Below, piece after piece: positions 27,324 to 64,000 of a stretch of DNA of 64,000 nucleotides. The stretch lies in NCBI GenBank assembly GCA_037176885.1, contig JAWWNJ010000010.1, positions 434,001 through 498,000 on the forward strand, written 5' to 3'. Source of the DNA: Favolaschia claudopus (lineage: Eukaryota; Basidiomycota; Agaricomycetes; Agaricales; Mycenaceae). A program made the translations under genes and the position numbers. The number at the start of each line of letters is the position of its first letter. Positions within the stretch are counted from its first letter, which is position 1. The notes under the pieces are model-generated. The model saw nothing but the letters and a program-made list of their open reading frames with translations. It was not told the origin of the DNA and ran no database searches.

Positions 27324-27966
27324 TTCGCTCTGCGATGCACAGAACGACGCGAGCCGGCCGGGGTTTAAACAGAGAAGAAGAATGAAACACTGATTAAACG
27401 TAAACATGGTTTAAACGAGGAGAAGGTTTGATTTGGGGGTAATACTGTTGCATAATTATGGTCAATTTCAATCGAAATATACGCACCTTGTCTCAAAAAA
27501 ACACACCCCCAAACAACAAAAAGACACACCTCTCTACTGTGCCCCAAAACTTCACGGCTACTAAACTACAGCATTTAAACTGCTGCCCGCAGATTTTGAC
27601 CCTCTCACACACGCATCAAGGAAAAAACACACACGTTGAATTTTTGTCCCAAGTGCTCAGCCTCAAACTTCACGTTTAACGCCTCGGCAGAAAAAAGCCC
27701 CCACCCTCCAGACCGAAAAAGAAAAAACACACACCCTATCAACAGGGCAAAAAAAACGCGCAGCAATTTCAGCTTGAAACAAAAATACACAGCTTGTAGC
27801 AGCGGAGAAAAAAGGACACCTCCCACATTAATTGTAGGTCCCACAGCCAAGCACGAGTAGGTAAGTCGGTTCACTGTTCCGGACCGATCCGATTTTAATC
27901 TGATCATCATCAATCTTGATCTCAATCCAATCGTCTTCATATCTATTCTGCCTCTACTCTCCCACT

Positions 27967-29632
27967 ATGACCAACGACGCGGTCCATACATTCCTCCTGG
28001 AAGCTCATAACATCTGTGTGCAAGCACAGTTCATCATTGACTCTCTTCCCAACGCTGAACTTCCCGCCGTCGAACGCAGCGCGCATCAGCTTGGAGCCGT
28101 GCGCCAAATCGTCGTCGTACTCGAAGACTTCTCCGTCACAGAAGAGATTCGTGAGACCCTCCTGGCCGATGTCGACAAACTGCTGGCTCCTCTCGAGGAT
28201 TTCATCACCAACCCACCTCCTCCAGCCAACACCACTCATGCTAGACTTCGGACCGGGCGCCCTGGACGCCCCAGCTATGTACTTGACCTGCCCCGCGCTC
28301 GCCTCCTCCATGACCTAGGAAATACATATGAAGAAATCGCTGCTGCTCTTGGTGTCAATCGGACGACAATTTGGCGCCAATTCGAAAGGGCTGGCATCCC
28401 CACCGCTCGGCGGGCCTTCACAGAAATCACTGACGACGCACTCGACGAGATCGTCGCCGAAATCTCGTTGGCGCATCCGTTTGTTGGCTCTGTGATAGTT
28501 TCCGGTCATCTGGAGGCTCGGGGAATCCACCTTCCTCGCCTTCGTGTTCAAGATAGTTTGAGGAGAGTTGACGAGATCGGCGTCCTTGTTAGGTACGTTT
28601 CGATGTTTCTATTTTACTTTCTTTCCTTCTTTTCCAATCTAACAAATCAAAATGCTCATCTAATTACAGGTGGGCCGGTATAATCAAGCGTCGTGTCTAC
28701 AAAGTGCGCGGCTCCAATGCACTGTGGCACCAGGACGGCAATGAAAAACTGCGTCCTTGGGGATTCTATGTACACGGCTGCGTCGATGGCCATTCGCGGC
28801 TTATCATCTATCTGGCTTGTTGCTCCAACAAGAGAATGGCAACAGTAGCGGAGCTTTTCCGAGCTGCAGTTGCTGTTTTTGGATGGCCTAGCCGGATGCG
28901 GGGAGACTTTGGCACTGAGAACAACGAAGTTGAGCGCCTCATGATCTTGTACTGGGGGATCCTCCACCGCGCATATCTCAGAGGACGGTGAGCCATTCCA
29001 ATATCTGTGTATCAATATAACAACTTAATAACAACTTAATCCCCTCCAGCTCCCGCCACAATGTACGCATTGAGCGTCTCTGGCGTGATATTCGCAAGGA
29101 CGCGCTAGAGACATTCCGTCAAATCTTCGATTATCTCGAAAAGAACGACCTGTTGGACATGGAAAATCCTGTTCACAGTGCGTGTTTATTTCTGGTCTTT
29201 CAGCCTCGAATTCAGGCAGCGCTCGACCGCGCGCGCGATGCGTGGAACCATCACCGTCTCCGCACCCAGCACGACAAGACTCCAATCGCTATCTACGAGC
29301 TCAGCCGGACCGCTGCTATCACACGTGGGTACTGGACTGGGGATCCCGGGGATGATTTGAATGCTGCTTCCGATCCACTGTATGGGTTTGACGGAGATGC
29401 TCCACTCCCTCCTTCTGGGCTTGATGAGCCGCTCGAACGCGCGGAACAACCCACAGGAACGGCAGAAGAGCGGGCAGGGGGGATCCTTGTAAATGGGGAT
29501 GAAGACCTTGCTGCTGCTGCAGAGCTGCTTGGGGATTTTGATTGCGGCCGAGACGATGGAAATTGGGGGATTGAGGTTTATTGTGAGGCTGTTGTTCGTA
29601 TGATCTCTGTACTTGGTGGCGAGGCACCTTGA
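27967..29632 (+). CDS. DDE integrase/transposase-like protein with HTH
   Basis: Three exons (27967-28592, 28670-28987, 29050-29632) give 508 aa. The N-terminal 90 residues are helical. A GRPGRP hook (residues about 97-102) precedes a helix-turn-helix around residues 110-140, containing TYEEIAAALGVNRTTIWRQF. An integrase-core (RNase H-like) domain follows, with Asp231 in WHQDGN, the CVDGHSR strand at 246-252, Asp288 in RGDFGTEN and Glu323 in RHNVRIERLW. These form a full D-D-E set. The tail is acidic. This resembles the integrase-core proteins found in many eukaryotic genomes, including fish and fungi, that are related to IS3-like or retroviral integrases. It would cut and join DNA ends. Lying 640 bases inside the left terminal repeat, it is a good candidate for the enzyme acting on the element. 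No defect is seen. Confidence 0.8.
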
Positions 29633-46660: not shown

Positions 46661-49600
46661 TTACGTGGATTCTATGTTGTTGAATCTGAACGCTGGATTT
46701 GTTTCATCGAGGAATGCCCAAACCAACGCTTCCTTCAATCCGTTTTCTTTCCAAGCGTCCAATAATCTCGGCACCTTACCCACAACAGAAATCAATGACT
46801 CGTCGTGCCCGCAAACAACAAGAACATCCGGATTCATATCGAACGCGCGCATCTCATGAATTGCTTTCCTCGCCAACTGCGGGTCCTCGAAGTAACCGCT
46901 TTCCGCAATATCAAGAAGCGGCTCTGTGCGCGCGGTGAGATCGAACTCGGCGCCGTTGGGGCCAGATGAAAAGTGCGTGGCGGAGATGGAACGACGAGTT
47001 GAGGTGATGAGGTTGCTTGGATATGGGTAAAGATGGTGGAGTTCCTCGGTGGGACGAAGTAGACCGGGGTGAAAACATGCGTCGCCGGCGAGGAAGAGAA
47101 ATGTAGTTGGAGTTGCGCGTGCAAGAGCGCAAATATGCCCTTCGAGGTGCTGCAATAGTAGTTGAGCAAATGTATTTACCGCAGTAAAAAACTGAATCTA
47201 TGCTACACCTGGAACATCCAGCAGGTAAAGACTTCCATCGCCGAAGTAATCGAGTGACTTGAACCCCCCGATTACAAGCGGAGAATTGGTGAAATCCAAT
47301 GGGACAAGTTTTCTGGTGCTAAAAACGTTTGGGAACCGCGAGGAAACGGTCGTGTGGAATGAGGCTTACGCAGTATCGCTAGGCTGAAGCTGAACCTTCG
47401 GATCTGAAATACTTCTGTTCATTTCTTGGCTGAAAACTAAATCGATCGATGGCGGGAACTTGGACATATCCCCTATGAGAATCAACTTGTCAAGGAATTT
47501 AGATTAAAATAAGCAGGGCACACGAACCAATATGGTCGAAGTGAGCATGGCTGCAGAGAGCGAAAATAATCAGCGAAGTCCGACTCATAACCAGCAACTC
47601 ACCTCCAAATCACCGCATCCAGGGTCCCCAACTCGACTCCCTCGTCCTTGAGCTGCTGCACAATATCCCTCTTCACAGGCATCGCAACAACCCCAGCCTT
47701 CACTGCCTCAGCAATCACCGGCGCCGTATTCTCCAAATCCGCGCGTGGTCCCAAATCAAACATGACCCGCTTTCCTGTCGCATGGTGCTCGATGAGGAAT
47801 GCGAAGACGGTGATAGGGCCGCTCAGCGGCTAGGCATGAAATGCCCGAAATTTATCGATTTTCGAGATCTATCAGCGGGAGAAGTGAGGCTAGGATAACA
47901 GAAGGTATGCCCGACCTCGCGGGCAGTATCTTATTGCTGTGGATAGCCGATAAGCTGGCAGGCCACTAACAGGTAGCGGCGGCTTAGCGACGTTTCCCTA
48001 AACATGGGTGCGAGACTCTGCCGCTGACTATTTCTACTGCCAGGCCGAGAGACTTAGTGGGAAACTACTATCTCAAGGTGCTGGAGGCGACCAAGAGGAA
48101 CTACCGACCTCCCTGAGGTTAGGCGCTCACCCGCCGACCCACATGAAGAAGATCTAGCGGGGGACCATCTGAGTTCAACTTCGAACTCAGGACGGCCGCC
48201 ACTCTACCGACGAACATCATCACCGGCAGACTCTAGCCGAGCGCGCCGGCCGATCGATCACAGACAGCCGGGACTTAACCGACTACCAGCGGGAGCACCG
48301 CGGAGCCAGCGGCTACCCAACCAACGGCTCTGTCAGCATGATGAGAAGGACATGGCGAGTTGCCGGGGGCATTTCCCGCTGATTGCGGACAACCCGAACG
48401 GCGAGTGGCGAGCCGCTCACGCGGCCCGGCTCTCCCTATTTCCCCTGGGACTTAGACTGTTCTGAAGATAGGAGACGAGACGAACTTGACCGCTGTCGAG
48501 CCGTTGACTAACTACTCAGCGGGAAGCCTTTTCGACTTCAACTCGACCAGCGGCAAGACCATATTATGAAGGAGGAATTTCGTGTCTCCTCCCGGGGACA
48601 TGGCAACCAGCACGCCATTGCACTGCAATAAGGCGCAATACCCACCCGCCCGCATGGACTTTCTCCGGGAGGCAGTCTTTTCACTCACGACTCGCAATCC
48701 TGAATATACCATTGGTTCCCAGCGGGCGCGGCATCAAACTTGGACACTCTCTCATCATGATTTTATTTGGTTGTTTCTGCTCCCGCTGCATGTATTTAAT
48801 CTCCCGGTGTACTTTTTGTTACTCAGTCAATTACCTACCCGTAGACAAGGGCAGTTTGTAGCGGACTCTAGAATTTGAATTGGAACTTTGAAAGAGACTA
48901 GACTTGATATCTGAGAGAGACTCGAGTGATACGGAAAGACTTGTGGCATACCGAGCCGCCAGAACTTTGAGAGCCCCGCCAGCCTTTGAGCCCGCGCCCT
49001 CCTGAAATACGAAGCCCCGTCTCTTGCAGTTCCGCGGTATAACCAAGACCCCCGTTCGTGCTTGATTCCGCGCCGTCAACGCCCCGTGTGCCCTGCCGTT
49101 CCGCGGTATTCAAAGACCCCCGTTCGAGCTCGCCGCCGCGTAGTGGTGTAAGTGCCCCGGCCACTGTCAGTGTCCGCGCCATCGACGTAAGAGCCCCGCT
49201 CCTCGCCAGAGCCGCGCCAGTTGAATAAGAACCCCGTCCCGCTGAGCCGCGCCTTCTGCCCGCCGGTTGTCATCCAGAAAGCTTCTTCCCGGTTGACGAT
49301 CCACTACCGGGCGACACTTTTCTATTGGCACGGAGACCCTCCCCGCTAGACTCAGAATTTCTCATTTCGAAGTCTCAGAAAGAGTGACTCTTCGCTTCTC
49401 CCGCTGCGAATCGTTGTGCCCGCTACGTTCTCGCTAGACAATCTAGTAGTTCGTCCTGCTCAAACGTAGCGACCTTGATTGACTGAAGCTTGCACAAGTA
49501 TTCTGAGGGACGATACGTGCTCCCGCCACCCCGAACACACACACACACACACACGTCGTATTGGATTAGATTTAGTGATTTTATATTTCGGTATATTTCA

Positions 49601-49790
49601 CGCCTACACCCGCACGCACCGTTTCAACGGGGAAGCCGAGGTTTTCGTGCCCGGGGAGGACGGGGCTCAAGAATACTGCGGCGGGGACTTTGACTGTGTG
49701 CAGGGTGGGCTCGTCGACAATGTTGAAAATTTTCACGGAGACGGTGGATGAGGAGGGTGGGATGCCTAGGTCAAGGAAGGAAGAGGACAT
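46661..49790 (-). pseudogene. Metallo-beta-lactamase-fold hydrolase, split by a 1.8-kb repeat
   Basis: Minus-strand. The first exon starts at 49790 with MSSSFLDLGIPPSSSTVSVK and ends at ENLGFPV. After the insert (47811-49626) the frame resumes with FAFLIEHHATGKRVMFDLG. Family motifs follow: HAHFDHIGD (HxHxDH metal site), LDVPGHLEGHI (third His region), FLAGDACFHPG (bridging Asp) and CGHDES (last His). The stop is at 46661. The family includes lactonases, thioesterases and other hydrolases; a short fungal member like this often sits in biosynthetic clusters. Removing the repeat plus one ACGG copy gives an in-frame LGFPVFAFLIEH, which is normal for the family. The gene therefore was intact before insertion. 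The last protein part (about 40 aa after CGHDES) is also complete. Confidence 0.85.
47811..49626 (-). mobile_element. 1.8-kb TG...CA repeat (solo-LTR-like) inserted in the hydrolase gene
   Basis: Read on the minus strand, it begins TGAAACGGTGCG and ends GCGGCCCTATCA. The 4-base ACGG flanks both sides on the plus strand (47807-47810 and 49627-49630). A second, inverted copy lies at 52795-54605 and is nearly identical apart from small indels and a (CA)n length difference. TG...CA ends, a short target duplication and absence of terminal inverted repeats fit an LTR. It is rich in AGCGGG/CCCGCT hexamers and contains a degenerate GGCGCGG-GGGGCTCTT repeat of about 300 bases. Confidence 0.75.
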
Positions 49791-50619: not shown

Positions 50620-51850
50620 AGGACCCACGAAAATCCCTTATGAGGTTTGATACCAAAAGCTGTCCACGGGCGATTCTTGTCCGGACTTCCTGCTCTCGAC
50701 TGGCTCAATTTCTTGTCCGGATTGCGGCCTAGACCTCCAAAATTTGCCCATTTCTTGTCCGGACCCCGAAATGAGATCAAAAATTGCTAAATTGCTAAAT
50801 TTGCCCGAAAATTGCTATTTTTCCCCCCCATGCGTCTACGGGTCTTGTCAAGTTCAAATCTGCTACTTGAGGCACTGAGACCAAATTTCAAAGGTATGCC
50901 CTCGCCTTTTATGCATCGCGCTTGCCATCACATCGCTTGATTGCCACCTACGGCCTGTTCGATGGGTTGATTCAGACAATGTCGGAACAATGGATGAATT
51001 GCAATCAACGGAGCAATCAAGGCGGCTTACATAACGGACAGTGCAGTCAGTGCAATCTAGGACCCCTGGTAATCAACTATGATGCCTGCCCGCGAAAAAA
51101 TAATTCGGATAAAACATGCCCCAAAATCGCGCGAACTCAGGACGAATTCGGATGAGAAATCGAGGTCCCGGGCGGCCCAGCCTGGCCGAAAATTCGGGTA
51201 ATGCATGGGGACTGCCGACCAGCCCTGGGTGAGGTTCGGATAACGTCGGGGCTCGGCCGGCAAATTGAATGGCTCTGACGAGAAATTGCAGCCGACTGTG
51301 GACCAAATCGGCACACTGTCTGGCGGAATCACTGGCAACCAGCGCGGATTCAGGCGGATTATCAGGTCAAAAATGCCGACTGTCAATCTTACCAATTGCA
51401 AACCGGCCGAGGACTTCTAGCATTGTCAGACTCGCCGGGGCTAAATAAAATGTCTTTCGGCCGAAGACGGCAAAGGAGAAAAATCTCGATTTTTTCTTCA
51501 TTTTAGCCGATTTTCTAGGGTCTGGTCGACAGTTCGGATAAAACATCGACCTGGGTGAGGCCAAGTTCAAATTCGGATGAGTTTCCCGCTTTCGGGGTTC
51601 GGATAAGACGTCCCAAAATTCAAATTTTCCCGGGCAGACATCGTAGTTGATTACCAGGGGTCCTTGCATTTTCCATGAAGCCGAAGGCTGCCGGACCTTA
51701 GTTTGTCTGGTCTGTTGCCACCCACCAGCCTTGTCCGGACGTGCGACCACAAGTTGTCAGGCTGAGGGTCGTTTTCTGAGGTGGCAGTGTTTCCGGAAAA
51801 ATTTGTCCGGACCTTCTGCTCAAACCTCACAAAGGATTTTCGTGGGTCCT
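50620..51850. mobile_element. hAT-like non-autonomous element
   Basis: The ends begin AGGACCCACGAAAATCC, and the inverted match continues through TGAGGTTTGA. Flanking octamers GTCGAATC (50612-50619) and GTCAAATC (51851-51858) agree at 7 of 8 bases, fitting an aged 8-base target duplication. The subterminal word TTGTCCGGA occurs several times near both ends. No transposase frame. Confidence 0.7.
51059..51664. mobile_element. Second hAT-like element nested in the first
   Basis: TIRs begin AGGACCCCTGGTAATCAACT, with the match continuing for about 35 bases. Flanking octamers TGCAATCT and TGCATTTT agree at 6 of 8. The first seven bases of the TIR are the same as those of the outer element, so both probably answer to the same transposase family. 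Confidence 0.65.
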
Positions 51851-52794
51851 GTCAAATCCATTTTCAACCTGTGTCACGCCTCACACGGGCTGTTGTCAAA
51901 TAGGCTGTATGGTTGCCAAAATTCCTTCAAAATGCTATTGTTCTCGAACAATCACCTTGGAAAGTAGTAAGAGCTTCTGGTGCATATCCTCAACTTCTGA
52001 TGTTCAACCTCTTGTGAGTGTTTCAGTTGAGTAAATTTTAATCAGATCCTCGGGGCAAAGGGCAAATTCTTTGCTCAAACCAAGTTCAAGCTTTAACTTC
52101 AAAATAGCTACACTGAATTTCAATGCCAACAGAATTGTACAGCAATACAAATAGCAGGCTCAGAATATTCAACTATATATATACCCAACTTTATCAACAG
52201 CAACCATCTCCTAGTTTACCCCAAACCAATTTTTATGTCAAAACACTTGTAGTGCTAGCAGGCCCTTGAGACCAACTTGCCAGCGATCAAAGTTTGAGGG
52301 TCCGGCTCTTAGCATATTCAGCAGTTCATGAACAAGACCTGATATAGGGTCCGTGCACTGCTGTTGAGCTCCCTCTGTAGATGTTGCAGTCAGCATCACA
52401 GTTTCTGAAGCAGTGGTTCACTTACGGTACTTGGCAAATTCCCTCAATATTTCCTCAATTATAGGGAACACGTGTGGAAGGTTTAATATGGTTGACCAGA
52501 CATTAGATGTCAGAATTTGCGCCCGAAATTTTGCTGCCATGCGAGAACAAAGACACAATCAACTTGTGAGCGAGGTCAGAATGAGATACATACAGTTTGC
52601 GGCAAAATGTGTTATAATGGAACCAGCACATCTCATAACAGCAGGCTTTGGACTTAGAAGCAGGGTTGTCAAGTGCACTGATTCTTTGAAATCCATGGTG
52701 AAGGTACTAAGTTTGTTAGATTTGGGGCCAGAGACTGAAAACAAGAGCCTCTCACTTGGGTAAGCTGAAGATGAGTTCAAGATATGAATTCCGG

Positions 52795-54605
52795 TGAAAC
52801 GGTGCGTGTAGGTGTAGGCGTGAAATATACCGAAATATAAAATCACTAAATCTAATCCAATACGACGTGTGTGTGTGTGTGTTCGGGGTGGCGGGAGCAC
52901 GTATCGTCCCTCAGAATACTTGTGCAAGCTTCAATCAATCAAGGTCGCTACGTTTGAGCGGGACGAACTACTAGATTGTCTAGCGAGAACGTAGCGGGCA
53001 AAACGATTCGCAGCGGGAGAAGCGAAGAGTCACTCTTTCTGAGACTTCGAAATGAGAAATTCTGAGTCTAGCGGGGAGGGTCTCCGTGCCAATAGAAAAG
53101 CGTCGCCCGGTAGTGGATCGTCAACCGGGAAGAAGCTTTCTGGATGACAACCGGCGGGCAGAAGGCGCGGCTCAGCGGGACGGGGTTCTTATTCAACTGG
53201 CGCGGCTCTGGCAAGGAGCGGGGCTCTTACGTCGATGGCGCGGACACTAACAGTGGCCGGGGCACTTACACCACTGCGCGGCGGCGAGCTCGAACGGGGG
53301 TCTTTGAATACCGCGGAACGGCAGGGCACACGGGGCGTCGACGGCGCGGAATCAAGCACGAACGGGGGTCTTGGTTATACCGCGGAACTGCAAGAGACGG
53401 GGCCTCGTATTTCAGGAGGGCGCGGGCTCAAAGGCTGGCGGGGCTCTCAAAGTTCTGGCGGCTCGGTATGCCACAAGTCTTTCCGTATCACTCGAGTCTC
53501 TCTCAGATATCAAGTCTAGTCTCTTTCAAAGCTTCAATTCAAATTCTAGAGTCCGCTACAAACTGCCCTTGTCTACGGGTAGGTAATTGACTGAGTAACC
53601 AAAAGTACAGCGGGAGATTAAATACATGCTGCGGGAGCAGAAACAACCAAATAAAATCATGATGAGAGAGTGTCCAAGTTTGATGCCGCGCCCGCTGGGA
53701 ACCAATGGTATATTCAGGATTGCGAGTCGTGAGTGAAAAGACTGCCTCCCGGAGAAAGTCCATGCGGGCGGGTGGGTATTGCACCTTATTGCAGTGCAAT
53801 GGCGTGCTGGTTGCCATGTCCCCGGGAGGGGACACGAAATTCTTCCTTCATAATATGGTCTTGCCGCTGGTCGAGTTGAAGTCGAAAAGGCTTCCCGCTG
53901 AGTAGTTAGTCAACGGCTCGACAGCGGTCAAGTTCGTCTCGTCTTCTATCTTCAGAACAGTCTAAGTTCCAGGGAAAATAGGGAGAGCCGAGTCGCGTTA
54001 GCGGCTCGCCACTCGCCGTTCGGGTTGTCCGCAATCAGCGGGATATGCCCCCGGCAACTCGCCATGTCCTTCTCATCATTCTGACAGAGCCGTTGGCTGG
54101 ATAGCCGCTGGCTCCGCGGCGCTCCCGCTGGCAGTCGGTCAAGTCCCGGCTGTCCGTAATCAGCCGGCGTGCTCGGGTAGAGCCTGCCGGTGATCCTGTT
54201 CGTCGGTAGAGTGGTGGCCGTCCTGAGTTCGAAGTTGAACTCAGTATGGTCCCCCGCTAGATCTTCTTCATGTTGGTCGGCGGGTGAGCGCCTAACCTCA
54301 GGGAGGTCGGTAGTTCCTCTTGGTCGCCTCCAGCACCTTGAGATAGTAGTTTCCCACTAAGTCTCTTGGCCCGGCAGTTTAGAAATAGTCAGCGGCAGAG
54401 TCTCGCACCCATGTTTAGGGAAACGTCGCTAAGCCGCTGCTACCCGTTGGTGTCCCACCAGCTTGTCGGCTATCCACAGCAATAAGATACTGCCCGCGAG
54501 GACGGACATATCTTCTAGTATCCTAGCCTCACTTCTCCCGCTGATAGGTCTCGAAAATCGATAAATTCCGGGCATTTCATGCCTAGCCGCTGAGCGGCCC
54601 TATCA
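52795..54605 (+). repeat. 1.8-kb TG...CA repeat, copy upstream of the Zn2Cys6 gene array
   Basis: It is the inverted partner of 47811-49626, here in plus orientation, beginning TGAAACGGTGCG and ending GCGGCCCTATCA. Flanking bases (CCGG before, TCTC after) do not form a target duplication. This copy is thus not a simple solo insertion and may be the 5' terminal repeat of a longer element whose body is the gene array to its right. Hexamers AGCGGG/CCCGCT occur about twelve times within it. Confidence 0.75.
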
Positions 54606-55296
54606 TCTCCCCCTTTCTAGATTTCAACTCTCCCGAGTTGACGACTTGTGATCGCCCGCTAGAGGTCTTATCCATCTTCCCGGGGAAGGGGACTTCAAGA
54701 CAAACTTCTGTCTTGGAATAATTTTAGACAACGAGCGGGCCGCCAGTGAGGCCCGGTTCCCGCTCGTCCCCTTTGGTATTTCATGAGAAAAACCTTAACG
54801 AAGGACTCGTGGCGACCTAATTTTAGATCCCACTCTACCTCCGTTGACAGTTTCTGGACTCAACTCCTCGCCGCGGCCGGCGATGCCGTCACTTTCATTA
54901 TGAGGCGTCATTCCTGCCTTTTTCGGAAGTACATCAAATTAGAGAAGCGCTCGAATCAAACTCTAACCCTGCGCTCTCTAAAGCCGTCCTATTCATCCGC
55001 AGTTTGGAATGTTTGGGATCAAAGAAGCCGCGGGGACCCCCCGCTTCTTCATTCAAATGTTTTTCTCGGAAATTTTCTCGAGAATCCCATCAAACATTCA
55101 AACTCCGACTCCTCAGGGTATAAAGAGTCGAGAGGTTTCTGGGTGGATTCCCCACCGATTCCCCGATTGGGTACCCCCTTGCCCTCTCTTCTCCTCATTT
55201 AATCTTTCTGTCTTTCGCCCGCCAACCGGATTTCTGGCGCTTTGCACCGGGGAGCTCTTCCTTTCTTTGCTCATTCTTTGACGCTACACCCGCGGC

Positions 55297-58200
55297 ATGT
55301 CCTCCAAACCCAGCGGCGGCTCTGCCTCTCGCCCTGAATCTCGCTCTTCTCGTCGCGCCCCGGCAGCTTCGTCTCCACCGCCGCTCCCTCGAAAACAGCT
55401 TTCTGGACCTGGTCAGCCGCCCGCCGCTTCGTCCTCGAAGTCGACCAAGCTCCCTCCACCGCCGCTGGAGCCTTCGAGTGTCGACTGGTTCTCCGTGTGG
55501 CGCGACAAGCCGGAGGAATGGAAGACTCTGCAAGAGTTGCTCGTCCCGTCGAAACTCGCGAACTATTCTCAAGCGGGGGTCGGCAAGATGTTGCGTGCCA
55601 TTCAAGAGCCGCTGGTGAGTTTCCACCGGTCATTTATTCTTTCAGTTCTTAATTTTCTTTCTAGAGAGAGCACCGGGCGATTTTGGGGGTTGCCCAGAAA
55701 GGCCTCGAGCCGCCCCCGATGGCCCTTGCCATAAGCGTCCACCTTCAAAAAGCCATACAGACGTACGACCCGGAGGAGCACCTGCCCGATATTCAGGCCC
55801 TTCGCTACCGCAAGACCGAGCTCAAGCAAAAGAAGGTGCGCCCCCACCGGTAACTTTCTTGGCTCCGCCGCCGCTGATCGTTCAACCAGCTATTCTTCCC
55901 CCCGGCCCCGACCAAAACTATGGAGGCTTTTCCCATACCGCCGCCGCCGACGACTCAGTTCTTCGTCGACCGAAAGACCAAAGCCGCCCAGGTGAGTTTT
56001 GTTAACATTTTTCTCTCCCAGGCCACTCTGACTAGACGCTCTTTTAGTCTGCGTCTACATCTGGCAAAGTTAGCGGCAAGGCCGCGACGGCCCCCAGCGA
56101 CTCTGGAAAAGTCAGCGGCAAAGCCGCCACCGCGGCCGCTGAGTCGGGAAAAGTCAGCGGAAAGGCCTCCGCTAAGGTGAGTGGCCATTGCCGCCTACTT
56201 ATTTTCCTTTCTGATTTTTTCCTATAGGGAGAGGAGACGCCCCGCCCCAGGAAGCTCCCGGATTTCAAAAAGACGGTAAGCCCTTCTTTCTAATTCATTC
56301 TTAATTCTCCCGGCTGATTGATCTTATTTAGACCACCGCCTCCACCACCGACAAGCCAAAGCCCGAGCGGGTCAAGGTAGTCACCAAGACCATCAAGGTC
56401 CCCGCCGACACCCCAGCCGCCAGCGGCAGCGGCACCAAGCGCAAGGCCTCGGGCGGCGCCGAGTCGTCTCCCTCAAAGAAGGTGAAGGAGGATAAAGCGG
56501 CCAAGAGCAAAGCGGCCAAGGCCCCGTCTCGTAGTCAGGTAGTTGTGGCCCGCTGCTGTCCCCAATGTAAGGCCGACATAGAATTAACAATAAACTTCTC
56601 GTAGTCCGTCATCAGTGTCCCGAGCTCCGGCGACGAGCGCGTTCCCGTCCCCGACTTCGAAATTCGTGAGTCGAAGCCGCCTCCCGCTTTAGAAATTCTG
56701 ATGCTGAAATCTTTCTTAGTGATAGAGACCAAGCCGCCCGCCGCTCGGAAGAGCAAGAAGACCAAGCCCGCCACCGTCGACACGGTGCCTTCTCTCAAAG
56801 GGTTGGGCACCCGCGCCGCCCAAATCGCTGCCTTGGAGGGCGTTGGTATCAAGCCAGCCAAGCCGGTGAGTTGTTATCAGCGGGGGATTCATCCGCTAAC
56901 ATTTTCGCTCCAGCTCCCCGAGCAGCCCATCAGGTCAATGGAGCCGACCAAGAAGAAGAACAAGCCCCGCCCCGAGGGCAAGTTCAAGGTGCCGAACAAG
57001 GATGTCGTGAACAAGCTGTTCACCAACTATCCTCAAGCCGCCCGCCGCCAGGACCTCCCGTACGACGCCGAGAGGGAGCAGTTCGCTTTGGCCGCCCCAA
57101 GCCTCATCGGCAACCTCGAGCTGAACGTCGCCAATGTAAGGCGGTTTCTTTCTCCTTTTCTTATCTTTCTCAACTTTTTCTATCTAGAACGGCCCCCGCT
57201 GCTTGCGGTGTATTGCCTGCGGTAGCAAGTGCGAGTCTACCGGCGTCCCTGGCGAGTGCACGGCCTGCGCCAGCCGCAAGTCCACCAAGGACTGCACTTT
57301 CCTCCTCGACGGCGAAAAGCTCAGCTCCATGGGCTCCGGGCTGAAGCAGTGGGCCTCGATGACCCGGCCCGGTAAGCCAACCATTACTTTCCTGTTTAGG
57401 CCCGCTGACCGTTTCAACAGAGTGGTTCGACTTGAACGCCGATATCAACGCCGCCGCCGCCACCTGCTTCGCTATCCAAGAAGCCTTCGAAAAGGCACGC
57501 TGGAATTTGAACCAAAAATCCTTCAAGATGCTTCACTCGGTCTTGGTCACCCGCCGGGAGATCCAGCGGGAGGATTTCATCAAACGCTTCGCCGGCGAGA
57601 CCCCCGAGGAGCAGGAGCAGAATATGGACCAGGTCTTGCGCATCGCCATGACCCAGGGGCTGACCGCCGCCTCGACGATCACGTCGAACCGCTGCTGGCA
57701 ATACTATCCTTCTGAGGTCATCGACAAAGTCCCCATCCCCGGCTTCACGGACGCCTACGCCTTCTACGAAGCCAAGGACCGCCAGGACCAGAACGTCCCG
57801 CTCGCCTTCTACCTCATCCCGGCCGAGCCTGAGCTCTCGATGCCGACACAGTGGGTCGAAGTGCAGGTGAGTTTTCTTCCTTTACATTATTTTCTTTCTG
57901 GGCCGCTGACCCTCCTTATTCCCTAGCCGGAGGACTGCGTGGACCTCTTCCACGACTTGAAGGGAGAGGACGCCGCTGAAGAAATCCCCGACGGCTCGAA
58001 GGTCCGTCAACGCCTTTTCATAGACGGCAAAGGCCCGGTCAATCTTGACCCGAACGACGAGGACGGCAACACCTTGCCCTACAGCTGGGAGCACAAGAGC
58101 GTCCCCGGCTTCTTCAAGATGTTGTACCGCAAGGGTACTTTCTTCGAGATCCCCGACCCGCCGCCACCAGAGCCGAAGCGCAAAGGCAAGTCCAGCGGGA

Positions 58201-58758
58201 AGGTGAAATCATCTTCCGTGGTTCACGACGACGCCGACGACGAGTTCAAACCCGACCCGACTTCCCAAGAGGAAGACATGGGCGAGGCCCCGGACGACCG
58301 TACGTCGAATTTTTACTTCTTCTTTCTAAATTCCTTGCTAAAGTCAACTTTCCCCGCTAGCCATGGACATCTCTCGCCCGCCGACTCCTGAAAAACGCCC
58401 GAAGGGCAAACAGCGGGCAGTCGATCCGCCCATCCCTTCATCTAGCGACGAAGAGGAAGGAGAGTCCGGCGAGGTGGGTGCACCCGCTTTCGACGACTTC
58501 TTAGCTGAGTCGTTTGCACAGGACGAGTCCAGCGGCGAGGAGTCCAGCGAGGCCGAGGTACGCGGCAGCGTCCAGGGTGAAGCCGACGAGGAAGACGACA
58601 GCGATCTCGAGGAAGTCCAAATCCCCGGGACTGCCGATTTCGCAGCCAGCGGCGAGGAGGACCTTGGGCCAGAAGACGATGCAGTGGGCGAGGAAGATGT
58701 GGATGTCCATCTTCCCGATCATCCTGCTCCTTCGGGCGACGACGCGGTCGAGAGCTGA
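55297..58758 (+). CDS. 934-aa Zn2Cys6-cluster protein with acidic tail, unrecognised family
   Basis: Thirteen exons (55297-55614, 55665-55835, 55890-55991, 56048-56176, 56228-56275, 56332-56538, 56605-56665, 56720-56865, 56914-57135, 57188-57371, 57421-57866, 57927-58299, 58361-58758) join in phase. The N-terminus is Ser/Pro/Arg-rich and contains DWFSVWRDKPEEWKTL. Exon 4 encodes repeats of SGKVSGKA. Residues 240-400 are Lys/Pro-rich with KKKNKPRP. Exon 10 carries Cys473, Cys476, Cys483, Cys492, Cys495 and Cys504: C-x2-C-x6-C-x8-C-x2-C-x8-C, the spacing of fungal Zn2Cys6 clusters. A helical domain and a Pro/Lys linker follow. The last 130 residues are Asp/Glu/Ser-rich. A basic middle, a metal cluster and an acidic tail suggest a chromatin or transcription factor. 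The cluster lies internally, unlike typical Gal4-type factors. I see no frame damage. Confidence 0.72.
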
Positions 58759-59544
58759 GCGGGTAAGCACACTCCCCCTTTCTTGAGTCTTTATCTTCCC
58801 GCTGACCATCTTACAGCCTTTCCTCGTGGGTGGGCGGGCGGCAAGTAAGCGATTCGCCCGACCTCCCGCTGTCTTCGACTTCTCGCTGACGTCTTTCTAG
58901 AAATTTTTCTGTATTCATAATCGCGGGGGCCGAGCGGCCCCCAATATCATCAAAAGCTACGGGTACGGGTCCCATAATCCCGCTAGATGCGAACTGTCTG
59001 GCCTGGTGGAATTCCACCCGCCATGACCCCCAAATAAAAATAAATTGCCCCATAGTAGTAGCATCGTGTACCGGCCAAAGAGCCGATGAAGCGCAAAAAT
59101 AAAAACTTTTACGATGCTCCTTTTCATGTGTGAATCAACTTCTAAGTTCTGTTTGAGTTCCGAAGTCAGAATCCCCGGCTAAAGCCTCTAAGTGATTTAT
59201 AAGAGCCTGAAGCGAGAGATTCTGGCTGAGTGCTGCGCCCGTCGGCTGAGTACGACTTAGAGAGCGAGCTGAACGTTGAACTTCTCGAGTTTTCAACATG
59301 CCGAGCGGCAACGGCGCTTATCACCGGGGTCATCAGATACCGGGGATTGCCCGTGGTACTTCATCTGCTGTCAGCGGCTGTCCTCGGACTCCACCGGGTG
59401 GCTAGTTCCTCATTTCTCCCGCTGGTCTCGTAAGAGTGATAACGTAGAGTAGGACTGGCCCGGCGGCCCGAGCTGCCCGCTACCGTACTTGTATAGTCGA
59501 TAGGGGTAGATAGCCAATCAAACCATCTTTTTCCTTCAATCGTC
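58759..59544. other. Intergenic spacer within the gene array
   Basis: No coding sequence. AATAAAAATAAA-like A-rich stretches near 59,030-59,105 are probable polyadenylation signals of the upstream gene. Three CCCGCT hexamers occur here. Confidence 0.5.
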
Positions 59545-60287
59545 ATGCCTCAGCCTATAGGTGAAGTCTTAATCGACTACCATTCCTTCCCGGTGGTCAG
59601 TCAAGACTTTGTGCGCAAGATCTATACTGTGGTAGGCTGTCCTCAACACATTTCTGCGCCAAGTCCAACCAGCCGCTAGCCGAATCTCGTCTGCACGCCT
59701 TGTAGTGACGCCGGCGAAGATTGTGAATTTCTTCACTGGGGCTCGAAGTGCACTCGGTGCCGGGAGGCGAAGGTCCCCAAATGCTTGTTCGCCGGGGTGG
59801 ATTGGTTCAAATATACCTATCCCTCTTCAACCTTTCCGACACTTTTCATCTATCGCAGCGGTAAGTCCTGCCGCTCTTCGAATTCTCATCTTTCTTATTC
59901 TATCCAGGCGGCACGTTGTACGACCTTGCATTCCTCGAACTCTGGTACCACTTGCGCCTCGGCGGCTTAAGCCCCGATATGTTTATAGGTTCGGTGGACG
60001 GTGAGCCCGCTGACTTCTTGCGTCGGCGGGAGGAATTTGCTGGCGACCTTCGTGACTGGGACATTGCTCACGACCTAAACCACGCCGCTCACTCCAGCCG
60101 GCGGCTGTATTTCTACAACATCCTATCTCGAGTTTTACGCGAGTGGCGTACCCAGGATCGCTCGATCCATGCCCAGTGCGACGTCGACGCAGCTATCCTG
60201 CTCCATGATATCAGGCGACGGGACTCTAATGCTCCGACCGTCGTGCCCTTGGCCCAAGGCACGCGCCGCCAGACCTTCGAGCGGTAA
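59545..60287 (+). CDS. 215-aa Zn2Cys6-like protein, array member 2
   Basis: Three exons (59545-59631, 59680-59860, 59908-60287). Exon 1 gives a 29-residue head. Exon 2 carries the cluster Cys34, Cys37, Cys44, Cys53, Cys56, Cys64 (C-x2-C-x6-C-x8-C-x2-C-x7-C), with EFLHWGSKCTRC in the middle. Exon 3 is an Arg/Asp-rich helical domain with two LRDWD/LREWR-type segments. The same three-part build recurs in the next two genes, with a phase-0 intron before the cluster exon and a phase-1 intron after it. Transcription is in the same direction as the rest of the array. It lacks the long tails of the 934-aa protein. DNA binding is plausible from the cluster spacing, but the usual basic residues between the second and third Cys are few. 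Function unknown. Confidence 0.72.
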
Positions 60288-60459
60288 CCCAGGCTAGTAG
60301 CTTTTCCCCGTTAGGGTCAAATAAATCTCTTTGCCCGGTCGCAAGCCGTTATCGTGATGTCTGATTCCTTCTGAGCTTTTGGTCCGGCAGCCGGTGGTAC
60401 TCACCCGTCGGCTATAGGTTTTACTTATAGCGGCCGGTGCCCAGTGAGTCCTTCGAGCG

Positions 60460-61131
60460 ATGCCCGCCTTTTCTTTGGCAGCGACTTTTTACTCAGAACG
60501 CTTTAGGAGCTTCACCGGTCCCTCAGAGTACCAGCTCGTACTTCAAGCTCAATTTGTGGGTCTTTCGTTCTTTCTCAGTGTTCTCCCGCTGACGGGTGCC
60601 TCTTCTTAGCCGGAGTACGAATGCCAGTGCTGCCTCAAGAACTACCGCCATTGCATCTGGATTCAGTGGGGTGAAGCCTGCCTCAGCTGCATGTTCATAG
60701 GCCGCGCCGCCTTGTGCTGCTATACTAAGAAGTCCGTCTGGCAGGCCGAGAACAGCCGTCGTCGCGACACTCTCCTAGCCTCTCGGCCAGGTAAGTCTGC
60801 TTTCTATCTTTATACCTCCCAGCGGGGGCCTTAGTGAATTTTAGCTCCCTCCGCCGGACGGATCGCTCAGTTTGACTGGTACGCCCGGGCTGCCGGTGCC
60901 CGACTCGACGAGAAGAGGTACATTGACGTGCGTACTTGCACCATCCTCGCCGCCAGGTCCATGCTCGGCACCCTTGGGTTTGGCCAGCTACGCTTCTTGT
61001 ACGGACTGTGGTTTGACGCGAAGGGGGCGGGCGTACGAAAGGAAATTGTAGATCTCCTCCGGGATAGGTTAGACGCTGTAGCCCTCCAGTCCGGCGCCAG
61101 GCTCCCGCCCGTCATGTTCATCGGGCCGTAA
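60460..61131 (+). CDS. 187-aa Zn2Cys6-like protein, array member 3
   Basis: Three exons (60460-60555, 60610-60790, 60845-61131). The start codon is inferred from the clean phase-0 join to the cluster exon. The cluster is Cys37, Cys40, Cys47, Cys56, Cys59, Cys68 (C-x2-C-x6-C-x8-C-x2-C-x8-C), with IWIQWGEACLSC at its centre and two extra Cys (39, 69). The C-terminal exon is helical: QFDWYARAAGARLDEKRY and then LRDRLDAVALQSG near the end. Similarity to members 2 and 4 is clear in layout (the W-G-x-x-C-x-x-C core, exon phases) but low in sequence elsewhere, as expected for old duplicates. Function unknown. Confidence 0.68.
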
Positions 61132-61414
61132 GCGTAGTAGGAAATATATTCCCACTGTCAAACGAACTTGCATCTTTAAAACTCTGTTTCAAGCTGCCCG
61201 ATTAGGAAGGCTTCTTAGAAACCAAAGCTTCCTCGTGTTTTTGCCCAGCGGGAGCTCAGCACCTCGTTGGATATTCCACATGTATTGCGGATCTTCCGGG
61301 AGCGTCGGGTGCAATGAGCCCCGCTGTCGATCTCTCTGTTTTTGGGTCTCCCGCCAGGTCTCAGAGAGATATTTAAGCTGGCGGGAAGGTCCCATTTGCC
61401 TCAGTCGTCTACTC

Positions 61415-62043
61415 ATGTCTTTGCTGGAACATCCACTCTTTCCGAATGACCCCGTCGGCCCGCTCAGGGAGTACTATGTACGTTCCTGAACATTTTGCCT
61501 CGGGTAATTCCTCATCATTCGGCAGCCTGGCCGGGTATGCTCTGCGTGCCTCAACGCCCGTTCTCATTGCGAGTTTACTGAGTGGGGAGCGCCGTGCACC
61601 CGCTGTTACTTGCTGAAGCACAACTGCTCGTACACCCAGACCGCTGAGCTGGCCGATGAAATTGCTGCCCGCCGTCACCGTTTCAAAGAGGGTCCCGATC
61701 GTAAGTGACGACTTCTTTCTTATCTGTTGCGCCACAACTGATTCCCCGCTCGCTTCTAGCGGCTACGAAGGAACAGCTAGCTGCTTGGGACGTCCTTCAT
61801 GAGGGGACCCTGGCGCAGTTCCCATTCTGGCAACAATACCATTCTGTAATCGTCGGGCGGAACGTCGCAGAGGCAGCCCAACGGCTGTCTTTTTACTTCG
61901 AGGCCCGCTTGGTTTTCCATCTTCTTCAGGAGGCCAAAACGGCTAATCTCCCGGCCGCGTATGTTGCTGTTATCCGCGAGCGGTTAGACGTTCTCGCCAA
62001 TAATCTTTTCCTGGATCTTCCGGCTAGGATGCGGGCAGTGTAG
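61415..62043 (+). CDS. 173-aa Zn2Cys6-like protein, array member 4
   Basis: Three exons (61415-61477, 61526-61700, 61760-62043). Exon 1 encodes a 21-residue head. The cluster is Cys26, Cys29, Cys36, Cys45, Cys48, Cys55 (C-x2-C-x6-C-x8-C-x2-C-x6-C), a textbook Zn2Cys6 spacing, with EFTEWGAPCTRC like member 2. Exon 3 is a helical domain with AWDVLHEGTLAQFPFW and ends in an ERLDVLANNLFLDLP segment comparable to the DRLDAVALQSG end of member 3. Intron phases equal those of members 2 and 3. The small size and single cluster exclude a complete Gal4-type activator. It may work as a partner of the 934-aa protein. Confidence 0.72.
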
Positions 62044-62462
62044 ATACCGGCACATGTACTTTCGGATAGTTCGTTCCGATAACACACGCTCCCGCCCCAT
62101 GTGAGGCCTTGGAAACATTTATTTCTTGGTAAAGATGTGCCCGCTGCCCTCAAATGACGTGCTAGGTGACCCACCTCTCCCCCTTTCAGAAATCTCAACT
62201 GTCCCCAGTTGATCGATCAGAGGAAATTCAGGTTCCCCGGCAGCAAATTTTCGTGCCACGGAACGATCGGGTGCGTTTGAAATAATTTTCTGCGCCACCG
62301 GCGGGTACATCTACCATAAATGGTAATCCAAGTTCGGCCGTTGACCAAATTTCGTCCAAATTATCCTTACGGCGTTAATTACGGCCGCTCGAGTATAAGA
62401 AGCAGCGGGCGGACAGGTATACCCCCAGCCTCGTCTACTGTCTTTACTCTGCTTCCTCCAAA

Positions 62463-63707
62463 ATGTCTCAAAACGATTACAACACCGTCAAAGCCGATTT
62501 CCTCAAGGCTATGGACGTTGCCGCCAACCTCGTCAAGTATTCGCCGCCCGAGTCTCGCAAAAACCAGCTCAAGGACGTCGCCGAGATCCTTGTAAGAGCC
62601 GCCGGCTACATTGACCAGTCTCGTTTTGTTAACATTATTCTTTCGTTCGTAGGCGCGCCTTCCCCCGCTCATGCCTTTCATTTTGGAAGACAAGAGCGCG
62701 GTTCTTCGTGAGGCAATCTTCACCTCGCGTGAATATTACCACTCCTTGTACGACCCGGATGGTAAACGGGACGTGACCTTCCCCGCTGGGTACGATGCCC
62801 TGCGGCGGATCACCAAGGCCATTCACGAAGACCGTTCCAAGAAGGCGATCCCGCCCGTCTCCACCGTTTCTTCTTCCAAGGGGACCCGGGTCGGTTTCAC
62901 TAACTTTCATTGCCGTGCTCACCATTGACTCATCATCATCCCCCGCTAGAAGAGTACTCGCGGGCGGTCTCAGGGTGAACCCGAGTCTGAGGACGAGGAC
63001 GAAGGCACCGTTCGTGCTCCATCGCCCGCTCTCACCACCGTTGGTGCTGACGAGGTTCGTTCTTTCATTCAACAGCTGGCCTGTGTTGAGCTGACGATTG
63101 ACACTTCTATCATCGCCGTTGGGTGTTTGTTCACCCAGATGCTCGTTGACGATGAGCATGTCCCTGCTCCCAAGGCTCCCCCTACCGGTCCCAAGGCTAA
63201 GTCAGCCCTGGCGGGCAAGAAGGGTGTGCGCGCTGTAAGTCGCCCGTTATCTCTGCTTTTCAATTTCATTCATTCATTTTATTCTTTCAGCATAGCCCGG
63301 CCCCCGCTAAGAAGGGCAAGGGTAACAAGCGTGCCCGCATCGACAGCGTCCCGTTCCACGAGGACTCTTTCCTCACCCACGGTGAGTTTCCCGTTCACTG
63401 TCAGTGATTCCTCCCGCTGAGTGTTTTCGTAGCGACGGCTGAGTTTTACGCTTCGGCACCCGCTTCAGGTGCCGTTGTCGACGAGGCCGCTAGCGTCGTT
63501 GAGATGGGTACCGAGTTCATGAGCAACCACCTTGCCTTGCGCAAGCGGATGTATTTCATCATGGTCGAGCTGGCGGTCATCCACGAGAACCTTCGTAGCT
63601 CTCTGGCCCGGCGCGAGCAGCTCCTCGACGAAGGGGAGAAGATCTCGGCTCGCCTTCGCGACTTTCCCGAGTCCTCCTCTGCCGGCGTCGATGCTCATGT
63701 TCCCTGA
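62463..63707 (+). CDS. 338-aa helical protein without the Cys cluster, array member 5
   Basis: Five exons (62463-62591, 62653-62889, 62950-63234, 63291-63381, 63433-63707) join in phase. The N-terminal 120 residues are helical, with DFLKAMDVAANLVKYSPPES and DALRRITKAIHEDRSKKA. The middle is acidic (EPESEDEDEG) and then Pro/Lys-rich with KKGKGNKRARID, a likely nuclear-localisation signal. The C-terminal 70 residues form a long amphipathic helix, probably a coiled coil (LRKRMYFIMVELAVIHENLR through LARREQLLDEGEK). The gene is preceded by TCTCCCCCTTTC...CAACT...CCCAGTTGA, which resembles the sequence directly after the 1.8-kb repeat at 54,606. That points to a shared promoter module. The family was not recognised; it could be a dimerising nuclear partner of the cluster proteins. 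Confidence 0.68.
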
Positions 63708-64000
63708 CTCGTTCCTAAAGAGCTCCCCCAGCGGGTCCCCCTTTCTTCAGAATCCTCGGTACTGGCTCAATCGTTTCGGACACCTCACGGCTCATCCTTC
63801 TGCTGGCCGCCACACACTCCCCGGGTGCGCAACTTAGTCGCTGCTCACTGGCGGGAGATGCAGACAATCCAATTACTTAAAGACCTCGAATCCCGTTTCA
63901 AATTGTAACGTAGATATCGTAGTAGTAATTCATTTCCGCGCGGCGGCTTTTGTGGCAGAACGAGTCTTTCGTTTGAAAGGCAGCGGCTCATCCGTGTTAG
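63708..64000. other. 3' flank, continues beyond the window
   Basis: No gene seen. One more AGCGGG hexamer lies near 63,730, so the hexamer-rich compartment appears to run on past the edge. Confidence 0.5.

What the first reader, a model, noticed from the sequence alone, without database searches (positions are those of the whole stretch)
52795..63707. Possible undescribed large mobile element: 1.8-kb terminal repeat plus a same-strand array of intron-rich Zn2Cys6-like genes
Seen: a TG...CA 1.8-kb repeat at 52795-54605 is followed by five genes, all on the plus strand, with no recognisable reverse transcriptase, integrase or host housekeeping gene. A second copy of the repeat, inserted alone at 47811-49626 with a 4-base duplication, shows that the repeat is mobile. 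The right copy has no target duplication, as expected if it is only one end of something longer. The same unusual hexamer is dense in both the repeats and the genes. Known: LTR elements rarely carry spliced multigene cargo. Inference: the array is the body of a large LTR-bounded or otherwise terminal-repeat-bounded element extending past 64,000.
Basis: partly seen in the sequence, partly recalled or inferred. Interest (0 to 1): 0.9.

Follow-up and report, generated by a model that had tools for sequence, protein, structure and literature searches.

The report
Retrotransposon carrying five antisense spliced genes
A 20-kb retrovirus-like jumping gene in a fungus carries five extra intron-containing genes on its opposite strand, four of them resembling DNA-binding regulators, and its DNA is strewn with one short CGG-containing word, as if it marks itself for its own proteins.

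Summary
The 1.8-kb repeat at 52795-54605 has a 100% identical direct copy 22.8 kb further on, with a 4-bp target duplication (CCGG). It is a Ty3/gypsy LTR retrotransposon, about 20.4 kb without a nested 4.2-kb DNA transposon. The five plus-strand genes lie between pol and the 3' LTR, antisense to gag-pol, which would let their introns survive retrotransposition. Five further copies share the layout, 101 listed places carry gene B's last exon, and dN/dS is well below 1 in all five genes. Genes A-D each hold a six-cysteine Zn2Cys6-like domain; all 24 of 24 fold matches are Zn2Cys6 domains, none individually significant. The hexamer CAGCGG (wider word YRGCGGS) is 6.4-fold over expectation, on both strands and in synonymous codon choice, but not enriched in host DNA, a nested transposon or an unrelated Ty3 family. 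Best model: the antisense genes encode CGG-binding proteins that recognise the element's own DNA (VANC-like self-recognition). Structure and selection are shown; binding and anti-silencing are inferred.

The parts
52791..52794 (.). target site duplication CCGG, left copy (right copy at C10:511396-511399, outside the window)
52795..54605 (-). 1811-bp LTR; in the element's own (minus) orientation the 3' LTR; identical 5' LTR at C10:509585-511395
   Evidence: 1811/1811 identical
54606..54618 (-). polypurine tract AGAAAGGGGGAGA next to the 3' LTR (read by eye on the element-sense strand)
55297..58758 (+). cargo gene A, 13 exons, 934 aa, Zn2Cys6-like cluster in exon 10 (57188-57371); fastest-diverging gene between copies
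59545..60287 (+). cargo gene B, 3 exons, 215 aa, Zn2Cys6-like cluster in exon 2 (59680-59860)
60460..61131 (+). cargo gene C, 3 exons, 187 aa, Zn2Cys6-like cluster in exon 2 (60610-60790)
61415..62043 (+). cargo gene D, 3 exons, 173 aa, Zn2Cys6-like cluster in exon 2 (61526-61700)
62463..63707 (+). cargo gene E, 5 exons, 338 aa, no recognised domain
63930..64000 (-). 3' end of the pol gene (RT, RNase H, integrase), which continues to about C10:501961 outside the window; protease and gag follow
52795..64000 (.). dispersed array of the word YRGCGGS (core CAGCGG) on both strands, through LTR, exons, introns, spacers and pol; 147 sites in the 17.2 kb counted
47811..49626 (+). solo LTR of the same family, opposite orientation to the LTR at 52795, TSD ACGG at 47807-47810 and 49627-49630; also word-dense

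Best explanation
It is a Ty3/gypsy LTR retrotransposon of about 20.4 kb (24.6 kb here, with a nested 4.2-kb DNA transposon inside gag) that carries a five-gene, intron-bearing cassette between pol and the 3' LTR, antisense to gag-pol. Shown: element boundaries, gag-pol, cassette conservation in other copies, purifying selection, six-cysteine domains, and DNA-level selection for a dense CGG-core word over the element. Inferred: (1) the cassette has its own antisense transcription, and because its introns are backwards in the genomic RNA they are not removed and are copied intact; (2) the Zn2Cys6-like proteins A-D bind YRGCGGS sites along the element, so that it recognises its own copies; (3) the most likely use is to keep element chromatin active (anti-silencing, as VANC proteins do for VANDAL transposons) or to drive its transcription. 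My own odds: (1) about 0.8, (2) about 0.5, (3) anti-silencing about 0.35.
For: Identical LTR pair and TSD; RNase H and H2C2 integrase domains above Pfam cut-offs, RVT_1 just below; best PDB profile match Ty3 Gag-Pol, E 3.8e-46. Same layout in 5 of 5 further copies chosen by LTR spacing and, as far as fetched, in a diverged relative, C364; cargo and pol antisense at 10 of 10 loci where both are visible, two of them copies of one subtelomeric block. dN/dS well below 1 for A-E in pairs with more than a few changes; introns of A diverge about as fast as its silent sites. Six invariant cysteines in 4 of 4 cargo domains; 24 of 24 Foldseek matches and 4 of 4 PDB sequence matches at E up to 10 are Zn2Cys6 domains (family of some chains recalled), whose known half-site is CGG (recalled). 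Word: 82 against 12.7; 49 in coding sequence against mean 16.4, maximum 30, in 1000 synonymous shuffles; gene A of 6 of 6 copies exceeds all 500 shuffles; sites kept more often than other GC-rich CpG hexamers in 6 of 6 copy pairs tested; 6 of 9 single changes inside CGG at or below about expectation; no enrichment in the nested transposon, host part of the window or two copies of an unrelated Ty3 family.
Against: No binding, expression or methylation data. Pfam Zn_clus is matched only by D and below its cut-off (14.1 against 21 bits); no single PDB or Foldseek match is significant by E-value (best 1.1 and 0.25). The loops between cysteines 2 and 3 lack the lysine/arginine run that contacts CGG in Gal4-type domains (the rule is recalled). 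Gene A is only 24% identical in C364 although the word is the same, which does not look like protein-word co-evolution through A; B-D could be the binders. In coding DNA the surplus rests on A, pol, protease and gag; B, D and E alone do not exceed shuffles clearly and C has no site. The word in VANDALs is mainly non-coding and tandem; here it is in coding DNA too, on both strands and dispersed. Some changed words outside YRGCGGS are also enriched (CAGCCG 2.2-fold, CAACGG and CACCGG 2.0-fold, GAGCGG 1.8-fold). Introns of B and D differ less than their silent sites (B 0.08-0.09 against 0.25-0.30, D 0.01-0.02 against 0.13-0.16; 76-89 bases each).
Confidence: 0.5

Rival explanations
1. The word is a site for a host factor (transcription, nucleosome or boundary factor) that the element exploits; the cassette does something else, for example regulates the life cycle like retroviral accessory genes.
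For: The word is selected at DNA level on both strands, but nothing here ties it to the cargo proteins except the CGG core and the Zn2Cys6-like domain. Zn2Cys6 factors are common in fungal hosts (recalled). Gene A diverges to 24% while the word stays.
Against: The word is not enriched in the host part of the window (30 against 23.9) nor in two copies of an unrelated Ty3 family (3 against 3.4 and 4 against 3.3), so those do not use it.
Confidence: 0.3
2. The word acts in RNA: packaging, stability or Gag recognition of the genomic transcript.
For: It is spread along the whole transcript, LTR included. YRGCGGS is somewhat commoner on the element's sense strand, 81 against 66, a difference too small to count for much.
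Against: The core CAGCGG occurs 40 times on one strand and 38 on the other; an RNA signal should favour the sense strand.
Confidence: 0.08
3. The cassette is passenger host DNA captured by chance (transduction).
For: LTR elements are known to capture host genes (PMC7264820, abstract); the genes have introns and no recognised retroviral function.
Against: Same order in 6 of 6 full copies compared and gene B's last exon at 101 listed places; dN/dS well below 1; B, C and D share size, a three-exon layout and cysteine spacing, as after duplication inside the element; the word runs through the cassette.
Confidence: 0.05
4. The word is a by-product of base composition, codon bias or loss of other CpG contexts by mutation.
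For: The element is GC-richer (0.50-0.59 by part) than the host part of the window (0.50), and basidiomycetes lose methylated CpG (recalled).
Against: Exceeds dinucleotide and synonymous-shuffle expectations; equally GC-rich copies of an unrelated Ty3 family (0.58) lack it. Loss of other contexts cannot lift the density above that of random sequence (argument, not computed).
Confidence: 0.04

Closest known systems
Retand / Grande / RIRE2 plant Ty3-gypsy elements with antisense ORFs between pol and 3' LTR (PMC7264820 abstract, sections 5 and 7, passages; PMC11963269 abstract and passages)
   Same: Extra coding regions between pol and 3' LTR, antisense to gag-pol; conserved across copies; a DNA-binding or nuclear role suggested for the proteins.
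   Different: In Retand 97% of clusters have antisense ORFs with a TRP28 domain; here five multi-exon genes (27 exons), four with a Zn2Cys6-like domain, none with a TRP28 match. The word 'intron' does not occur in either paper's main text, and no element-wide word is mentioned in what I saw.
Boty / BcGypsy1 with antisense gene brtn in Botrytis cinerea (Zhao 2011, known to me only through PMC7264820 and passages of PMC8365987)
   Same: Fungal Gypsy element with an additional antisense gene.
   Different: One named gene in Boty; sequence relation to A-E not tested.
VANDAL transposons and VANC anti-silencing proteins of Arabidopsis (PMC5735166, passages)
   Same: Element-encoded protein; a short word dense in the element and rare elsewhere; proteins with highly variable parts.
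   Different: VANDALs are Mutator-like DNA transposons (recalled); VANC words lie mainly in non-coding DNA, in one orientation, often in tandem repeats; here the word is in coding and non-coding DNA, on both strands, dispersed. VANC binding and loss of methylation were shown there; neither is tested here.
Gal4-type Zn2Cys6 fungal DNA-binding domains (PPR1, Pho7, HAP1, Gal4, Leu3, Put3)
   Same: Six-cysteine spacing C-x2-C-x6-C-x8-C-x2-C-x6-8-C; predicted fold; CGG core of the word equals the known half-site (recalled).
   Different: Below the Pfam cut-off; basic residues of the recognition loop not conserved; only the domain is shared.

Membership tests
Ty3/gypsy LTR retrotransposon | two direct LTRs with TG...CA ends and a target site duplication | tested here: met
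   1811/1811 identical, CCGG; also C2 GCGT and C9 TCGG; C36, C268 and C95 lack a matching pair
Ty3/gypsy LTR retrotransposon | pol order protease - RT - RNase H - integrase | tested here: met
   protease ORF upstream; RNase H and H2C2 above cut-offs; RVT_1 28.0 against 29.6 bits; integrase core seen by PDB profile
Ty3/gypsy LTR retrotransposon | primer binding site and polypurine tract | tested here: inconclusive
   TGGAGCCCACCGCGAGG two bases after the 5' LTR and AGAAAGGGGGAGA before the 3' LTR; the search for the matching tRNA did not complete
Plant-type antisense-ORF elements (Retand/Grande) | conserved antisense gene(s) between pol and 3' LTR | tested here: met
   6 of 6 full copies, and C364 as far as fetched
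Plant-type antisense-ORF elements (Retand/Grande) | TRP28 domain in the antisense ORF | tested here: not met
   no such Pfam match in A-E with max E 10
Zn2Cys6 (Zn_clus) domain | six cysteines in two C-x2-C-x6-C halves | tested here: met
   4 of 4 (second half x6 to x8)
Zn2Cys6 (Zn_clus) domain | match above Pfam gathering score | tested here: not met
   D only, 14.1 against 21 bits
Zn2Cys6 (Zn_clus) domain | fold | tested here: inconclusive
   model pLDDT 71.6; 24 of 24 matches are Zn2Cys6, best E 0.25; rmsd 1.2 over 32 columns for Pho7
VANC-like anti-silencing | short word dense in the element and rare elsewhere | tested here: met
   (elsewhere = host part of the window, nested insertions, two copies of one other family; the whole genome was not scanned)
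VANC-like anti-silencing | word mainly in non-coding tandem repeats | tested here: not met
   coding too, dispersed, both strands
VANC-like anti-silencing | element protein binds the word and removes silencing | not testable with these tools
   needs binding and methylation experiments

The most novel reading that the evidence does not exclude
A self-marking retrotransposon: it encodes a set of four related Zn2Cys6-like proteins from a spliced antisense cassette, and has evolved some 150 recognition words spread through its DNA, coding sequence included, so that its own proteins find and keep every copy active. This would be an independent fungal, LTR-element counterpart of VANC anti-silencing, written partly in synonymous codons.
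Probability: 0.35. Interest if true: 0.92.

Novelty: new variant of a known kind. Interest (0 to 1): 0.78.

Why it matters
The function of antisense genes in LTR retrotransposons is not settled (PMC7264820). Here there are five, all with dN/dS well below 1, four with a domain type whose DNA target class is known, in an element whose DNA is selected to contain that target class. That makes a concrete, cheap test possible: does the protein bind the word? It would also be a case of a retrotransposon using synonymous codon choice to carry a DNA signal, and of introns kept through a retroviral life cycle because they lie on the antisense strand.

Tried and rejected
RT-less or new class of terminal-repeat element: rejected, gag-pol lies on the minus strand just outside the window. 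Tandem duplication as origin of the word: not supported, positions beside the core are near-random. Fixed dimer spacing of sites: gaps under 40 bp were listed by orientation and show no obvious preferred spacing beyond 3-bp self-overlaps; not tested statistically. Relatives elsewhere: the protein search with A residues 455-760 gave none of 2426 candidates, the B-C-D alignment none of the 7999 scored; both are weak tests for spliced genes. The pol search gave 1269 relatives of 6765 candidates, best 80% identical; among the 120 listed, the two that name an organism name Mycena species. IMG/VR scan with the pol alignment: 33 stretches matched a pattern, none a relative. C95 insert ORFs: no Pfam family in 4 of 4. 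Host name not established: the 5.8S request did not complete.
Full report
1. What is there. The window is bases 434001-498000 of contig C10 in an unnamed 264.6-Mb, 460-contig genome. The 1811-bp repeat at 52795-54605 has a 1811/1811 identical direct copy at C10:509585-511395, and the two are flanked outside by CCGG/CCGG. The element is therefore 24,601 bp. The inverted copy at 47811-49626 is a solo LTR with ACGG on both sides.

2. The missing half. From window 63930 onward the minus strand carries a 1344-aa pol ORF (RNase H, integrase zinc-binding domain; RVT_1 at 28.0 against a cut-off of 29.6 bits), a protease ORF, and gag ORFs without Pfam match. A profile of this pol and nine public relatives finds Ty3 Gag-Pol first in the PDB (E 3.8e-46) and an integrase core. 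Gag is split by a DNA transposon of about 4.2 kb (L009:6967 to L010:3207) with about 599-bp inverted repeats (95.8%) and a DDE_3 transposase. PBS-like and PPT sequences sit where a minus-strand element needs them. So gag-pol is read leftwards, and the five genes are antisense to it, between pol and the 3' LTR.

3. Other copies. I fetched five further LTR pairs chosen for their spacing among the 40 LTR places scored (432 candidates; other pairs, as on C66, C71 and C155, were not fetched). All five (C2, C9, C36, C268, C95) have LTR, gag, protease, pol, cargo, LTR in the same order, 20.3-20.4 kb, except C95 (27.3 kb), whose pol holds a 6.9-kb insert with 472-bp direct terminal repeats. LTR identity within the six pairs is 97.6-100%. 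Matching TSDs: 3 of 6 full elements (C10, C2, C9) and the solo LTR; C36 shares one flank with C9, C268 runs on into a further gag (tandem), C95 abuts another cargo fragment. A relative on C364 has B-E and pol like these, a gene A of only 24% identity, and an LTR that is 95% identical over its first 1081 bases and 78% over its last third of a kilobase; its gag side was not fetched. In other fetched loci gene A is 42-45% (C71, C278) to 99-100% (C164) identical over the parts held. Cargo and pol are antisense at 10 of 10 loci where both are in view (C10, C2, C9 twice, C36, C268, C95, C154, C19, C364; C19 and one of C9 are copies of one subtelomeric block).

4. The five genes. Models: A 934 aa in 13 exons, B 215 aa in 3, C 187 aa in 3, D 173 aa in 3, E 338 aa in 5. 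Introns are 47-66 bp with GT-AG ends in C10; in the other five copies intron 8 of A and intron 2 of C have GC donors. On the C10 model A is free of internal stops in 3 of 6 copies, B in 5 of 6, C in 4 of 6; D reads to its stop in 4 of 6. E was modelled one base off and corrected; its integrity in other copies was not recounted. dN/dS: A 0.15-0.18 in 13 of 15 pairs; of the other two, C2-C268 gives 1.22 on 10 changes and C9-C36 has no silent change. B 0.11-0.15 in 11 of 15 pairs, 0.30, 0.30 and 0.90 on 4-6 changes in three, undefined in one. C 0-0.30, D 0-0.21 (one pair without changes), E 0.02-0.16. Pol for comparison, C95 left out: 0.04-0.10 over 10 pairs. Introns differ from C10 by 0.25-0.37 in A, close to its silent divergence, by 0.09-0.11 in C and 0.04-0.07 in E, also close, but by only 0.08-0.09 in B and 0.01-0.02 in D, less than their silent sites.

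5. Mosaic. Silent divergence from C10 is 0.32-0.47 for gene A but 0.03-0.08 for E. C10-C36 has pol dS 0.024 and A dS 0.39; C2-C268 has A dS 0.003 and pol dS 0.053. Segments of one copy have different nearest relatives, so copies exchange segments (template switching or conversion; inferred). Part of this is shared ancestry of loci: C9 and C36 share a flank.

6. The cysteine domain. A, B, C and D each have one exon with C-x2-C-x6-C-x8-C-x2-C-x6-8-C; the six cysteines are the only invariant columns. Pfam Zn_clus is found only in D and below its cut-off. A profile of the four exons against the PDB returns 4 sequences at E up to 10, all yeast HAP1/CYP1, E 1.1-1.8; D alone gives one unrelated weak match. 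AlphaFold on the four-row alignment gives pLDDT 71.6 with short helices at both CxxC motifs; Foldseek returns 24 matches at E up to 10 and all are Zn2Cys6 DNA-binding domains (PPR1, Pho7, HAP1, Leu3, Gal4, Put3, AlcR and one titled only DNA-binding protein; the family of some is recalled), none individually significant. The match is consistent but weak, and the basic loop residues of the classical family are missing.

7. The word. CAGCGG is the most over-represented hexamer: 82 seen, 12.7 expected; CAGCGGG 42 against 3.5. By part: LTR 14 against 1.3, gene A 21 against 2.9, B-D 8 against 2.0, E 2 against 0.9, pol 15 against 2.3, protease 9 against 1.1, gag1 4 against 0.8; none in the 691 bases before gene A, where AGCGGG is present. 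Single changes: TAGCGG 3.1-fold, CGGCGG 2.3, CAGCCG 2.2, CAACGG and CACCGG 2.0, GAGCGG 1.8, CAGCTG 1.5 on 7 sites, CAGTGG 1.3 on 9; the others are at or below about expectation; a following G or C is favoured. I summarise it as YRGCGGS: 147 sites in 17.2 kb, 8.6 per kb, against 1.05 per kb in the first 47.8 kb of the window. Per kb of window, bins outside the repeats hold 0-5 sites and full element bins 7-13; the density also falls inside the two nested insertions. Controls: host part of window 30 against 23.9; nested transposon 1 against 0.4 and 2 against 1.3; C95 insert 4 against 4.1 (AGCGGG 6 against 3.9), 1.9 YRGCGGS per kb; two copies of an unrelated Ty3/gypsy family (25% pol identity, GC 0.58) 3 against 3.4 and 4 against 3.3. 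C364: 61 against 11.1; C19 subtelomeric relative 25 against 4.8.

8. It is selected in DNA, not through protein. With protein and codon usage fixed, coding regions hold 49 CAGCGG against a mean of 16.4 and a maximum of 30 in 1000 shuffles; single genes: A, pol and protease exceed every shuffle, gag1 is equalled or exceeded in 21 of 1000, B in 59, D in 251, E in 615, and C has none. Gene A in 6 of 6 copies exceeds all 500 shuffles; four of these six form two related pairs. Strands: 40 and 38. Site retention between copies of gene A is 0.74-0.89, against 0.50-0.70 for other CpG hexamers of equal GC, in 6 of 6 pairs among C10, C2, C9 and C95. Spacing is more even than random placement: 65 of 5000 as even for CAGCGG, 6 of 5000 for AGCGG, 200 of 5000 for YRGCGGS.

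9. Interpretation. An antisense cassette is a place where an LTR element can keep introns: they are reversed in the genomic RNA and are not spliced out (inference from the retroviral life cycle). Conserved proteins with a Zn2Cys6-like domain plus a selected CGG-core word over the element point to self-recognition. VANC proteins of VANDAL transposons do this for anti-silencing (PMC5735166, passages seen).

10. Known context. [quoted passage not shown] PMC11963269 abstract and passages; PMC8365987 passages). Bdelloid LTR elements carry extra ORF3s (PMC5408684, passages). I saw no description of a multi-gene spliced antisense cassette or of an element-wide word in an LTR element in the listings, which show titles and starts of abstracts; the library lacks most subscription papers. 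Two named pol relatives are from Mycena, so the host may be a Mycena-like agaric; this is not established.

Noticed in passing
junctions of 11 insertions (C10, C2, C9, C36, C268, C95, C174, C42, C155, C121, solo LTR at window 47811): The 4 bases next to the LTR are N-CG-N at 12 of 12 distinct junctions read (one search lists 13, of which C36's right end is the same site as C9), while CG makes up 6.3% of host dinucleotides: the integrase seems to prefer CpG-centred sites.
   Followed up: partly
C19, C66, C121, C420 at base 12384; C9 and C268 at matching distances from an end; also C34, C171 (ends not checked): Near-identical relatives of genes B and E lie at the same distance from several contig ends: a subtelomeric block holding a copy of the element (C19 read in part).
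   Followed up: partly
L009:6967-8000 and L010:1-3207: Nested DNA transposon of about 4.2 kb inside gag with about 599-bp inverted repeats, a DDE_3 transposase on one strand and further plus-strand ORFs without Pfam match on the other.
   Followed up: partly
L023:6629 to L024:3512: 6.9-kb insert in the C95 copy's pol with 472-bp direct terminal repeats (98.9%) and a 957-aa ORF without Pfam match: possibly an LTR element of another, unusual kind.
   Followed up: partly
27904-29632: ORFs with an HTH_23-like region (just below its cut-off) and an rva_4 integrase core domain, probably another mobile element.
   Followed up: no
51059-51664: About 606-bp stretch bounded by 40-bp inverted repeats (93%), perhaps a small non-autonomous transposon.
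   Followed up: no
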